Source of the DNA: Candidatus Jettenia sp.
GTDB lineage: Bacteria; Planctomycetota; Brocadiia; Brocadiales; Brocadiaceae
Direction: 5' to 3'
DNA length: 64,000 nucleotides
Assembly (NCBI GenBank): GCA_021650895.1
Contig: CP091278.1
Coordinates: 1,517,659-1,581,658, forward strand
In this document: positions 23,476 through 53,691 of the stretch, one piece after another
Layout: each line of letters opens with the position of its first letter
Numbering within the stretch: position 1 is the first letter of the stretch
Notes under the pieces: generated by a model
Databases searched by the model: none
Told to the model about the DNA's origin: nothing
Seen by the model: only the letters and a program-made list of their open reading frames with translations
Made by a program: the position numbers and the translations under genes

Positions 23476-23692
23476 TAGCATCCAAGAGATGAAACCGAAC
23501 AGAATGTGGAGAAAGTTGATCTTTGGTTGTATGCAAATGTATGGAATCCTTAAGCATGTCATTGCGAGGGGATTTTCCGAAGCAATCTCTTCTGAAACAT
23601 GCAAAGGATTGTTTCGGAAAAACCCCTCGTAATGACCGGTGGGGTAGTCTCTCCTCTGTTGAGGATATGTTCGATTCATCCTTGAAGTACTA
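23476..23692. repeat. MITE-like element C, copy 1 (217 bp)
   Basis: The ends are TAGCATCCAAGAGATGAAAC and, inverted, TAGTACTTCAAGGATGAAT, with imperfect terminal inverted repeats of about 30 bases. A TA dinucleotide flanks both sides (23474-23475, 23693-23694), as with IS630/Tc1-mariner elements. The interior holds the CATTGCGAGG...AAGCAATCTC palindrome. Copy 2, in the same orientation, is at 49473-49699. Confidence 0.85.
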
Positions 23693-49069: not shown

Positions 49070-49366
49070 TCAACGGCTTTTTTTAGTTACCGAATTACAA
49101 TCCACGACTGATTCTTTTGTAAAAATCGCATATTCAGTGTTGCCTATTTTTACAAAAGTGTTAGGGATGTAACGTCTAAGCTTTATTGCTTTTTTAACTT
49201 GCGAGGTTGCGTTAACCAGGATCAGGCATTTGTCTTTTAGGGGGATTTTATTTACAACTATAAGATAATGTGATTCCATATTGTTAAAGCTTTTTTCTGT
49301 GAAGGAGTAGACAGAGCCTGGTTGTATATATTGTAGACTTGATTTGTATATCTGGCGGGATATCAA
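49070..49366 (-). CDS. Small hypothetical protein, second gene of a disrupted pair
   Basis: This is 98 residues: YIQPGSVYSFTEKSFNNMES, HYLIVVNKIPLKDKCLILVN, AIKLRRYIPNTFVKI, YAIFTKESVVDCNSV. The order of short beta strands loosely resembles PemK/MazF-like small barrels, but no catalytic signature can be claimed. Its ATG overlaps the stop of the upstream small gene (ATGA, 49363-49366), an arrangement common in toxin-antitoxin pairs. That upstream gene is broken by MITE C, so expression of this one may be impaired. Confidence 0.6.
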   Translation of the reverse strand: MISRQIYKSSLQYIQPGSVYSFTEKSFNNMESHYLIVVNKIPLKDKCLILVNATSQVKKAIKLRRYIPNTFVKIGNTEYAIFTKESVVDCNSVTKKSR

Positions 49367-49813
49367 TCAGGGATTTGCTCCCATTGGTTTTTCAGTTCCA
49401 TTTGTTCTTTTATATAATGCAACATTTCTTCTTTGTCATCAGCATCCATAACAAATAAGTCTTTACCTTCTATAGCATCCAATAGATGAAAACCGAACAA
49501 AATGTGGTGCATGAGTCTTTGGTTGTATGCTGGTATAGGGAACGTTACGGAATCTCTAAACATATCATTATGAGGGTTTTTTCCGAAGCAATCTCTTCTG
49601 AAACTTGTAAAGGATTGCTTCGGACAAGACCCTCGCAATGACTGGCGGGATGGTCTTGCCTCTGTTGAGGATATGTTCGGTTTCATCATTGAAGTACTAT
49701 AATAGGGCTGAATGCTTGCTTCCAAGCATTGCATCCTTAAAGAAATCTTTGTAATCATCCCGATTGTTCAATTTTGTAGACAGTCCTACCGTCCTACCTG
49801 GATTAATTTCAGG
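49363..49813 (-). pseudogene. Small gene interrupted by MITE C copy 2
   Basis: On the minus strand, codons reading STKLNNRDDYKDFFKDAMLG and then SKHSALL run into a stop at the MITE edge, while the frame after the MITE reads EGKDLFVMDADDKEEMLHY and ends QWEQIPD. Deleting the element 49473-49699 together with one TA duplication joins ALL directly to EGKD in the same frame, giving a small acidic protein of about 60-75 residues. The start is uncertain: TTG at 49771 is possible, since no ATG fits and a stop lies at 49814. The family is unknown. It is coupled to the 98-residue gene by an ATGA overlap; acidic first gene plus small second gene is compatible with an antitoxin role, but this is a guess. 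Confidence 0.65.
49473..49699. repeat. MITE-like element C, copy 2 (227 bp)
   Basis: The ends are TAGCATCCAATAGATGAAAA and, inverted, TAGTACTTCAATGATGAAAC, flanked by TA on both sides (49471-49472, 49700-49701). It has the same orientation as copy 1 and the same internal GAAGCAATCTC palindrome. It interrupts a small gene. Confidence 0.88.
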
Positions 49814-49890
49814 CTATTCAAGTAATGAAAAAGTATAATTAAGTGTGGTGTTCCAGAAATTGCCTTGCCGAACAGAATGCACAAAGACGA

Positions 49891-52800
49891 TTATTTCTCA
49901 TGTGCAATTTCATCCGCTATCAATTCTGCTTGTTTCAATACCGTTTCAGTTGCCAGCATTTGCATGTCTGGCGGATAACCGTATTGTCGCAATACTCTTT
50001 TTACAATCACTTTCAATTTAGCCTTTACACTTTCCTTGATTGTCCAGTCTATTGACGCATTTTCTCTTACCTTTTCAAACAAGACAACGGCTAACTCCCG
50101 CAATTTGTCCTTTGCCATTACTTGTCGCGCACTTTCATTATTGGCGATTGCCGTATAAAAAGCATATTCGTAATCTGACATTCCCATTTCCTGAGGTTCT
50201 TTATCCATTTCCTTGATTTCTTTACTCAGTTTAATAAGTTCTTCAATAACCTCTGCTGCCGTTAGAATTTTATTGTGATATTTCTTGATGGAATTCTCAA
50301 GCATCTCCATGAACGACTTACCCTGTATCAAATTTTTCTTAATTCGCGCCTTGATTTCGTCATTCAAAAGTTTCTTGAGAACCTCAAGGGCAATATTCTT
50401 ATGCTCCATGTTTTGAACTTCGAGAAGAAAATCCTCGGAAAGAATAGATATATCCGGTTTCTTAATGCCTGCTGCATCAAAAACGTCTATGACCTGCTCT
50501 GTAACAAGCGCCTTATCTATGACTTGCCGTATCGCCGTTTCTAGACCCTCACCCCCGCCTCTCCCAAAGGGAGAGGAGCTATCGAATTTTGCCAGCCGGG
50601 ATTTGACAGCCTGAAAAAACGCGACCTCATCCTTAACATCCATTGCCTGTTCATGCGGGATCGCAATTGAAAAGGCCTGTGAAAGTGCCGTTACTTCATC
50701 AATAAACCTCTTTTTCCCGTTATCTAATCCAAGAATATGATCTTCAGCAGCAAGAATAAGAGACAGCTTTTTGCCTGTGCCGGCTTCAAAGTATTCCTCA
50801 TAAGCAAATGAATGAAACATCTGTGAAACAATTTCAAGCTTTTCAAGCATAAGTTGAACAGCTTTTTCCTGTGCGACAGCCGGGTCACCCTTACCGCCAC
50901 TATCCGAGTAGAAAGACAACGCTTTTTTAAGGTCAGCGGCAATACCGAGATAATCAACAATAAGACCGCCGGTCTTATCTTTATACACACGGTTTACACG
51001 TGCAATTGCCTGCATCAGGTTATGACCCCTCATCGGCTTATCAATGTAAAGGGTATGCAGACAGGGCACATCAAAACCGGTAAGCCACATATCCCTGACG
51101 ATAACAAGTTTGAGTTCATCTTCCGGGTTTTTCATCCTGTCGGCTAAAGTCCTCCGCTGTTCTTTTGTCGTGTGGTGTTTTGAAATTTCCGGGCCATCGG
51201 ATGAAGCGGAGGTCATAACCACTTTTATAACGCCCTTTCGCAAGTCGTCATTATGCCACTGAGGCCGTATTTTTATTATTTCCGCATAAAGTTCGGCGGC
51301 AATCCGGCGCGACATGGTGACAACCATGCCCTTGCCTTCGAATACCTCCTGCCGAAGTTCGAAATGGCTAACAACGTCCTGCGCAACCTGCCGTATCCTG
51401 TCTGCGCTCCCGATAAGGGCTTCAAGCTGTGTCCATTTTGCCAAACCCTCTCTTCCAATGGTGATACCACCCTCTCTTTTATCTCTCCCAATGGTGGAAC
51501 CACCCTCTCTTCCGTCTCTCCCAAAGGGAGAGAAACTATCATCTTCTTCCTCTAGCCATGTGCATGCATCCTCCTCTCCCTCTGGGAGAGGCCGGGAGAG
51601 GGTTTCATCAAAAGATGAAATCAGTTTTCTTCCTTCTTCGCTCAAGGTGATTTTTGCCAGGCGGCTTTCGTAGTAAATCCGCACCGTTGCACCATCGGTC
51701 ACGGCCTGCAATATATCGTAGACGTCAACGTAATTTCCGAATACAGCAGGGGTGTTGACGTCGGTATTCTCAATCGGCGTACCGGTAAACCCAAGGTAGG
51801 TAGCATTCGGCAGGGCATCCCGTAAGTATTTAGCAAAACCATAAACAATCCTCTTACCGACAACGTTTCCATTTTTGTCTTTTGCATCTATGGTTTTAGC
51901 ATTAAAACCATATTGCGTGCGGTGGGCTTCGTCGGCAATAACAACGATGTTCTTTCTGTCTGAAAGCCTTTCGTAAACATTGCCTTCATCCGCCCGCTCG
52001 ATTCCACGCGCAGGCGGGTCGGGTTGGAATTTCTGAATAGTGGTGAAAACAATGCCGCCGGAAGCAACCTTCAGGAGTTCTTTCAAATGCTCCCGGTTTT
52101 CAGCCTGCACCGGCTCCTGACGCAGGAGTTGTTTTGAAGAGGCGAACGTATCAAAAAGCTGGTCGTCCAAATCGTTTCTGTCGGTAATGACCAATATTGT
52201 GGGGTTGTCCATTGCAAGGACAATTTTCCCCGTATAAAAGACCATGGAAAGAGATTTACCGCTGCCCTGTGTATGCCAGACAACACCGCCTTTCCTGTCA
52301 CCAACGGGCTGTGATTCAGTACTGGGCAATCCGTAGCTTGCCGGCGATTCTATAACCTCCGGTTCGGCGGGTTTTGTGGAAGCGTAGCCTGATGCCCTCA
52401 GCGTTGATTCGACGGCACGGTTGACTGCATAATACTGGTGATATGCTGCAAGTTTTTTGATGGTAGTAATGGTCGTTATACCACCACCCTCTCTTCCGTC
52501 TCTCCCAGAGGGAGAGAGACTTTCGACGATGACCTTCAGCACGTTTTCGGTATACTCAATCAATTCAGCATTGCTGAATCGCAATACCTTGTTACCCAGG
52601 CTTTTCAGATACTTATCTCTTATTTCATCTTTTTTCCTTTGTTCCGAAGTGTTATGAACTTTACCGTCAAATTCAATAATTAATCTTTCTGAATGGCAAT
52701 AAAAATCAACAATATAGTGTCCTATCTGGTGTTGGCGTCTGAATTTTAGTCCCAAGAACCCTTTATTTCTAACCAGTTCCCAGAAAATCTCCTCTGCCTT

Positions 52801-53691
52801 CGTTTGATTCTTCCGCAATTCCCTAACTTGATTTATCATCCCCATAAAATACATCCCACCCCGATAATGCCCTCCCTCCCTTTGGGAGGGACTGAGGGAG
52901 GGTTGTTTTTGAACAGCCTTTCGTTCAAAAACAATAAAGTGGCGTATAAGGTCTAAAAGCGTATTCCTACAAAGCATACCTTTTATAAGTGTTTCCAACT
53001 GGCCGATGAGCGGCGAGGCTTCGATCTTGCCGTCCGCTGTCTTCCATGCCATGAAACGGCTGAAGCCAGCGGAAATGGTCCCAGCCCTTGCCTCCAGCCC
53101 ATCTGAAATAACGATGAAACCGCTGTATGCAAACAATTTGGGAATTGTCTGCTTATAGGTTTGTATCTGCTGAAAGGCGGAATGAATGGTAGCATTTTCA
53201 TCGGCAGGGTTTTTTAGCTCGATAATTACCAATGGCAATCCATTCACAAAAAGTACAACATCAGGCCTTTTATTGATGTGGTTCTCAATTACCGTATACT
53301 GATTCAACACCAAAAAGTCGTTGTTATCCGGGGCGCTGAAATCAATAAGCCATACGAGGTCGCCGCGGCTGTTACCGTCTTTTTGGTAACTTACCTTAAC
53401 GCCTTCGGTAAGCATCCGGTGAAATGTTTCGTTATTTGATATAAGTTCGGGCGAATTAAGGCGAAGCAGTTGTTTTACCGCATCTTCCCGCGCATCTGCA
53501 GGGATGTTCGGATTGATACGAGCCACGGCAGTAGTAAGCCGCTCAATGAGCAGGATATCCTCAAAAGACTGGCGTTCAGGTGTCTGGCCATCGGGCGCGA
53601 TATCAGTACCATAGAGGTATTGGTATCCGGATTTTTCAAGAAGTTCAATGGCGAATTGCTCGATGGAGGATTCAGTGAATTTATTATTCAT
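49891..53691 (-). CDS. hsdR: Type I restriction enzyme R subunit with inserted DUF559 domain
   Basis: This is 1266 residues. The N-terminal nuclease has Asp143 in RPDVVLF and Glu158-Lys160 in VIIELK. The motor has Walker A WHTQGSGKS (about 472-480), IADEAHRTQ (about 586-593), the FTGTPI motif, and later SF2 motifs including GFDVPCLHTLYIDKP and IARVNRVYK, followed by a helical C-terminal domain. Between FIVFERK (to 259) and TIKKLAAYHQYYAVN (410 on), where HsdR proteins are normally continuous, about 147 extra residues hold a complete DUF559 endonuclease domain (283-391). Further repeat-coded peptides (SPFGRDGREGG type) lie near 735-765 and 1045. HsdR drives ATP-dependent translocation and cleavage with HsdM and HsdS. 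It starts one base after the DUF3732 gene. Confidence 0.95.
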   Translation of the reverse strand: MNNKFTESSIEQFAIELLEKSGYQYLYGTDIAPDGQTPERQSFEDILLIERLTTAVARINPNIPADAREDAVKQLLRLNSPELISNNETFHRMLTEGVKVSYQKDGNSRGDLVWLIDFSAPDNNDFLVLNQYTVIENHINKRPDVVLFVNGLPLVIIELKNPADENATIHSAFQQIQTYKQTIPKLFAYSGFIVISDGLEARAGTISAGFSRFMAWKTADGKIEASPLIGQLETLIKGMLCRNTLLDLIRHFIVFERKAVQKQPSLSPSQREGGHYRGGMYFMGMINQVRELRKNQTKAEEIFWELVRNKGFLGLKFRRQHQIGHYIVDFYCHSERLIIEFDGKVHNTSEQRKKDEIRDKYLKSLGNKVLRFSNAELIEYTENVLKVIVESLSPSGRDGREGGGITTITTIKKLAAYHQYYAVNRAVESTLRASGYASTKPAEPEVIESPASYGLPSTESQPVGDRKGGVVWHTQGSGKSLSMVFYTGKIVLAMDNPTILVITDRNDLDDQLFDTFASSKQLLRQEPVQAENREHLKELLKVASGGIVFTTIQKFQPDPPARGIERADEGNVYERLSDRKNIVVIADEAHRTQYGFNAKTIDAKDKNGNVVGKRIVYGFAKYLRDALPNATYLGFTGTPIENTDVNTPAVFGNYVDVYDILQAVTDGATVRIYYESRLAKITLSEEGRKLISSFDETLSRPLPEGEEDACTWLEEEDDSFSPFGRDGREGGSTIGRDKREGGITIGREGLAKWTQLEALIGSADRIRQVAQDVVSHFELRQEVFEGKGMVVTMSRRIAAELYAEIIKIRPQWHNDDLRKGVIKVVMTSASSDGPEISKHHTTKEQRRTLADRMKNPEDELKLVIVRDMWLTGFDVPCLHTLYIDKPMRGHNLMQAIARVNRVYKDKTGGLIVDYLGIAADLKKALSFYSDSGGKGDPAVAQEKAVQLMLEKLEIVSQMFHSFAYEEYFEAGTGKKLSLILAAEDHILGLDNGKKRFIDEVTALSQAFSIAIPHEQAMDVKDEVAFFQAVKSRLAKFDSSSPFGRGGGEGLETAIRQVIDKALVTEQVIDVFDAAGIKKPDISILSEDFLLEVQNMEHKNIALEVLKKLLNDEIKARIKKNLIQGKSFMEMLENSIKKYHNKILTAAEVIEELIKLSKEIKEMDKEPQEMGMSDYEYAFYTAIANNESARQVMAKDKLRELAVVLFEKVRENASIDWTIKESVKAKLKVIVKRVLRQYGYPPDMQMLATETVLKQAELIADEIAHEK
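52471..52911 (-). mobile_element. DUF559 endonuclease cassette inserted in hsdR
   Basis: This in-frame insertion encodes MINQVRELRKNQTKAEEIFW, FRRQHQIGHYIVDFYCHSER and LIIEFDGKVHNTSEQ, the standard DUF559 (Vsr-like PD-(D/E)XK) pattern. It is bordered by palindromic repeats: CCCTCCCTTTGGGAGGGACT on one side (52871-52890) and TCTCTCCCAGAGGGAGAGA (52498-52516) on the other. Free-standing DUF559 genes are common; here one seems to have landed inside hsdR without breaking the frame. Confidence 0.75.

What the first reader, a model, noticed from the sequence alone, without database searches (positions are those of the whole stretch)
49363..49813. MITE insertion whose removal exactly restores a reading frame
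Removing 49473-49699 and one TA joins two coding fragments in the same frame (…SALL plus EGKD…). This fixes the element ends and its TA target duplication, identifies an IS630/mariner-like mode, and shows the insertion broke a live gene rather than landing in a spacer. The broken gene overlaps a second small gene by ATGA.
Basis: seen in the sequence. Interest (0 to 1): 0.72.

Follow-up and report, generated by a model that had tools for sequence, protein, structure and literature searches.

The report
IS630-type MITE in decayed antitoxin gene
A 227-base non-autonomous transposon sits, with a duplicated TA, in the leftover tail of a bacterial antitoxin gene that has also lost its front three quarters; the element is a new member of a known kind of mobile DNA, and its likely parent transposon was found in sister species.

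Summary
A 227-bp element (49473-49699) is flanked by TA (49471-2, 49700-1); deleting it plus one TA joins ...SALL to EGKD... in one frame. Four other anammox genomes (Kuenenia and other Brocadiaceae) have exactly this uninterrupted joint. The element is one of at least 27 near-full-length copies in this 3.82-Mb genome (genus of Ca. Jettenia ecosi); 23 of 27 inspected copies have TA on both sides, and four sibling copies have exact empty sites in congeners. The IS630 mode is now supported directly: a 1155-bp IS630-family IS in a congener carries the same terminal repeats (22/28). Its transposase has no detected homologue in the window's own genome.

The "live gene" claim is not supported. The host is only the last ~54 of 213 codons of a SocA/Panacea-type antitoxin gene (panA). 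A microhomology deletion removed its start and whole Panacea domain, and the partner gene is frameshifted and truncated. Whether the MITE came before or after this decay is unknown. The overlap is TTGA, not ATGA. The present sequence also has an unbroken 131-aa ORF reading through the element. Verdict: an ordinary MITE in an ordinary relic. The main extra is a hairpin loop that inverted in place in 3 of 7 orthologous copies.

The parts
49473..49699 (+). MITE (227 bp; TAGCATCC...GTACTA); family length is mostly 226 bp and this copy has one extra A in its left terminal repeat
49471..49472 (.). left TA of the target duplication
49700..49701 (.). right TA of the target duplication
49471..49499 (+). 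left terminal repeat incl. TA: TATAGCATCCAATAGATGAAAACCGAACA
49674..49701 (-). right terminal repeat incl. TA: TATAGTACTTCAATGATGAAACCGAACA; 22/28 identical to an end of the IS630-family IS in congener locus L189
49565..49641 (.). central palindrome (arms 49565-49593 and 49613-49641, 19-nt loop); arms also occur without the MITE in the genome; loop orientation differs between copies and between some orthologues
49702..49759 (-). upstream half of the panA remnant (DYKDFFKDAMLGSKHSALL)
49363..49470 (-). downstream half of the panA remnant (EGKD...QIPD*); the remnant is about residues 159-213 of a 213-aa SocA/Panacea protein
49753..49861 (-). sequence homologous to the region 5' of panA in congener G001 (74%, E=7e-15), fused directly to about codon 159: internal deletion at ATGATT/GATT microhomology
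49070..49366 (-). decayed partner (PanT position) ORF, TTG start overlapping the panA stop by TTGA; frameshifted near its end and lacking about 40 C-terminal codons
49325..49330 (-). TATATA where six relatives have a single TA (+4 bp in the partner gene); matches in form the footprint expected for excision of this MITE family (speculative)
49363..49758 (-). 131-aa ORF reading through the whole MITE into the panA tail; probably fortuitous
23476..23692 (+). second copy of the same MITE in the window (80% identical); exact empty site in congener G002, occupied in G001

Best explanation
49473-49699 is a non-autonomous IS630/Tc1-mariner-type MITE. An IS630-family transposase acting in trans on its roughly 28-bp ends (TATAG...ATGAAACCGAACA) moved it by cut-and-paste into a TA, which was duplicated. 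Shown: ends, TA duplication, multicopy family, exact empty sites, and an IS630-family IS with matching ends in a congener. Inferred: that this IS or a relative of it supplied the transposase. The target was the 3' part of a SocA/Panacea antitoxin gene (panA) of an antitoxin-toxin-like pair. In this lineage the pair is a relic: a microhomology deletion fused the 5' flank to about codon 159, removing the start codon and the whole Panacea domain, and the partner gene is frameshifted and truncated. The MITE is therefore one lesion among several in a decaying locus, not shown to be the one that killed a working gene.
For: TA-flanked ends and joined frame. At least 27 near-full-length copies with common ends and 23/27 TA on both sides. 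Empty site at the homologous codon in four other anammox genomes; homology to distant relatives stops at 49472. Exact empty sites of sibling copies L004, L006, L011 and L018 in congeners G001/G002. IS630-family IS (351-aa transposase, NF033545 208.8 bits against a cut-off of 100; DDE_3 plus HTH_33) with ends 22/28 identical to the MITE right end, 0 of 20,000 shuffles as good, in G002 L189 and G005 L190/L201. ISY100, another IS630-family element, inserts almost only at TA and duplicates it (PMC2170065). Host identity: PF13274 SocA_Panacea E=1e-23 in the intact homologue L035, spanning residues 34-143, absent from the window. Deletion junction. Partner-gene lesions.
Against: The genome itself holds no detected homologue of the matching transposase, so mobilisation by that IS is inferred from shared ends in relatives. 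The exact empty site for this copy is seen only in other genera: the closest congener locus (G001) has lost the site by its own deletion, and no panA match was found in G002. dN/dS of the remnant is low (0.22-0.32), so a late loss of function is possible.
Confidence: 0.93

Rival explanations
1. The MITE inserted into an intact, working panA gene and itself inactivated it; the 5' deletion and partner-gene lesions followed.
For: The remnant frame is stop-free and evolves under constraint (dN/dS 0.22-0.32 against intact homologues). The copy is fairly young (4 private changes in 227 bp).
Against: The start codon and residues 1-158 are missing. The remnant is too short for dN/dS to be decisive, and most of the constraint may come from before the decay or from the homologue's lineage. 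panA is independently deleted in G001 and G013, so decay without this MITE is common.
Confidence: 0.25
2. The insertion is tolerated: the 131-aa ORF (MITKIS... + 76 element-encoded residues + panA tail) is expressed as a new fusion protein.
For: The ORF is unbroken from an ATG at 49758 to the panA stop. One minus-strand frame is stop-free in about half of 27 inspected copies, and the usual 226-bp length plus TA is a multiple of three.
Against: No clear ribosome-binding site; the N-terminal 20 residues are an out-of-frame reading of the panA remnant; the functional domain is gone. The open frame in the hairpin can arise from base composition. None of the 27 copies examined reads in frame through a recognisable gene.
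Confidence: 0.05
3. The 227 bp are an ancestral part of the gene deleted in relatives, not an insertion.
For: None found beyond the logical possibility.
Against: Dozens of dispersed copies with the same ends in unrelated flanks, TA duplications, and precise empty sites for sibling copies.
Confidence: 0.01

Closest known systems
IS630/Tc1-mariner-family MITEs (e.g. Correia elements of Neisseria; recalled, not compared by sequence here)
   Same: Short, non-coding, TA duplication, imperfect terminal repeats beginning TATAG, central palindromes, dispersed copies
   Different: Different sequence and host; about 227 bp with an inner palindrome that also occurs alone; partner IS found only in relatives
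IS630-family IS in L189 (G002) and L190 (G005)
   Same: Ends TATAGTA...RTGAAACCGAACA and TA flanks
   Different: 1155 bp with a 351-aa transposase; no clear interior similarity to the MITE; absent from the window's genome as far as tested
PanAT toxin-antitoxin pairs (PMC8832971) and SocAB
   Same: The intact homologue has a SocA_Panacea domain and a small adjacent downstream gene
   Different: In the window only the C-terminal tail of the antitoxin remains; the partner gene matches no family and is broken

Membership tests
IS630-type MITE | TA target duplication | tested here: met
   23 of 27 copies TA on both sides; window copy TA/TA
IS630-type MITE | terminal inverted repeats shared with an autonomous IS630-family IS | tested here: met
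   22/28 to L189 end, 0/20,000 shuffles; transposase NF033545
IS630-type MITE | no transposase gene; multicopy with precise empty sites | tested here: met
   227 bp, no transposase; at least 27 copies; empty sites of four sibling copies
IS630-type MITE | mobilised in trans by the cognate transposase | not testable with these tools
   needs a transposition assay
SocA/Panacea antitoxin gene (host) | Panacea domain PF13274 | tested here: met
   Met in the intact homologue L035 (E=1e-23); the domain is deleted in the window copy
Working PanAT toxin-antitoxin pair in the window | intact antitoxin and toxin genes | tested here: not met
   antitoxin lacks residues 1-158; partner frameshifted and truncated
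PemK/MazF-like toxin (partner gene) | fold of the partner protein | tested here: inconclusive
   no family match; AlphaFold model poor, pLDDT 38.7

The most novel reading that the evidence does not exclude
One set of IS630-type ends acts as a chassis for exchangeable hairpin cores. The 19-nt loop of the core inverted in place in 3 of 7 orthologous copies, another orthologous site holds a different core between similar ends, and one copy carries a GIY-YIG nuclease ORF between the palindrome arms. The core would then be a separately evolving, actively flipping module rather than passive filler.
Probability: 0.15. Interest if true: 0.5.

Novelty: new member of a known kind. Interest (0 to 1): 0.27.

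Why it matters
It gives a clean, comparative case in anammox bacteria of a MITE family tied to its likely parent IS, with empty sites in congeners, and shows why a restored reading frame alone does not prove that a live gene was broken. The in-place loop inversions are a small measurable marker of hairpin instability.

Tried and rejected
Rfam: no match. The four intact IS630-family copies in the own genome as partner: rejected, their ends are CTAGTCCTGCTTCTATTTAA. Two larger TIR-bounded stretches, 3.3 and 3.4 kb (L081, L082), as autonomous elements: no ORF of 90 aa or more that I recognised as a transposase. AlphaFold of the partner protein: useless (pLDDT 38.7). PDB sequence search: nothing. 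Weak Pfam hits Nbs1_C and AMP-binding_C_2 to the small ORFs: below cut-off, ignored. hsdR arrival as the cause of the panA truncation: rejected, because the flank between hsdR and panA matches the panA 5' region of G001. IS630-like excision footprint TATATA in the partner gene: fits the 2-nt stagger of ISY100, but two TA slippages would do the same, and the four exact empty sites show no footprint. One search printed nothing because of a script error (wrong record picked as the window) and was replaced.

Full report
Observation. The element runs 49473-49699 between TA 49471-49472 and TA 49700-49701. Removing it with one TA joins, on the minus strand, DYKDFFKDAMLGSKHSALL to EGKDLFVMDADDKEEMLHYIKEQMELKNQWEQIPD*. 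The overlap with the next ORF is TTGA (TTG start), not ATGA.

Empty site. Four distinct Brocadiaceae homologues (L031/L148; L035; L034/L151 from Ca. Kuenenia hertensis; L032/L150) are uninterrupted at the same codon. DNA homology of the downstream half to them ends exactly at 49472.

Family. The 3.82-Mb genome, congeneric with Ca. Jettenia ecosi J2 (G001), has at least 27 near-full-length copies of 69-100% identity (only 40 of 133 candidates were scored, so this is a lower bound). The ends are common, flanks unrelated, and TA is found on both sides in 23 of 27 inspected copies (23 from this genome, 4 from relatives). The motif GATGAAACCGAACA occurs 91 times with up to one mismatch, against one hit for the reversed control. 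It also bounds other short elements with different inner palindromes. Copies L004, L006, L011 and L018 have exact empty sites in G001 and/or G002. L018 lies in this window at 23476-23692: it is occupied in G001 and empty in G002.

Partner IS. None of the IS630-family copies in the own genome has these ends. In congener G002 (L189) and in G005 (L190, and the internally deleted L201), an IS630-family element has ends TATAGTACTAAACAAGTGAAACCGAACA / TATAGTTAACAACAATTGAAACCGAACG (L189), TA flanks and a 351-aa transposase (L189: 1155 bp). Its end matches the MITE right end at 22/28, with 0 of 20,000 shuffles as good. The own genome shows no homologue of that transposase. Trans-mobilisation is thus inferred, either from a lost IS or from one that came and went. 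ISY100 work (PMC2170065) documents TA insertion and duplication for the family.

Host gene. Intact homologues are 213 aa with a SocA_Panacea domain at residues 34-143; NCBIfam gives only a sub-threshold SocA match (29.4 bits, cut-off 190). The window holds about residues 159-213 only, and the own genome has no other copy. The sequence 5' of the remnant matches the region upstream of panA in G001 (74% over 113 nt, E=7e-15) up to ...CGGGATGATT and then jumps to codon ~159, a microhomology deletion. The locus is orthologous in G001: the neighbouring TPR gene is 93% identical, and panA there has a different internal deletion. G013 has another. The partner ORF in the window has +4 bp (TATATA at 49325-49330), a 1-nt frameshift near codon 97, and lacks about 40 C-terminal codons. 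dN/dS of the remnants is 0.2-0.3, compatible with recent decay. The claim that the insertion broke a live gene is thus unproven, and I think it less likely than insertion into, or alongside, an already decaying gene.

Read-through ORF. Today an ATG-initiated 131-aa ORF crosses the whole MITE and ends in the panA tail. One minus-strand frame is free of stops in about half of 27 inspected copies, but no copy examined reads in frame through a recognisable gene. I treat it as fortuitous.

Core. The central palindrome (arms 29 nt, loop 19 nt) also occurs without the MITE. Loop orientation differs between copies. In orthologous pairs with scorable loops it is inverted in L010/L164, L013/L168 and L018/L169, and the same in L015/L219, L022/L223, L007/L220 and L014/L222 (the last two matched on one flank only): 3 of 7. 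Inversion of a spacer between close inverted repeats is a known kind of event (own knowledge); no recombinase need be invoked.

Novelty. New member of a known kind. No paper on anammox MITEs of this type turned up in a limited full-text search.

Noticed in passing
L010/L164, L013/L168, L018/L169 (core of the MITE): The 19-nt loop of the central hairpin is inverted between orthologous copies in 3 of 7 scorable pairs: inversion in place.
   Followed up: partly
L170 (G002:C3 about 1504650-1504789) versus L010: The orthologous TA site holds a different 144-bp MITE (other inner palindrome) whose right 31 bp are nearly identical: core exchange or re-insertion at one site.
   Followed up: partly
L115/L081 (G000:C1:153050-153510): A GIY-YIG nuclease ORF lies between the two arms of the MITE-type palindrome next to a MITE left end.
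   Followed up: partly
49891-53691 (-): hsdR carries an in-frame DUF559 domain (residues 287-392) and several in-frame copies of a 42-nt palindromic repeat (CTCTCCCAAAGGGAGAG); the domain looks like a repeat-flanked in-frame insertion.
   Followed up: partly
49325-49330: TATATA in the partner gene where six relatives have one TA; would fit an IS630-type excision footprint, but slippage is possible.
   Followed up: partly
L003, L005 (G000): Two MITE copies sit inside copies of another dispersed repeat, and in congeners that repeat lacks them.
   Followed up: no
L080 (G000:C1:3216600-3217600): A repeat array (36-nt unit ATATGAACGAAGACCTGTAATAGAAGGGATTGCGAC, CRISPR-like) abuts an IS630-type transposase fragment that is itself cut by a MITE end.
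   Followed up: no
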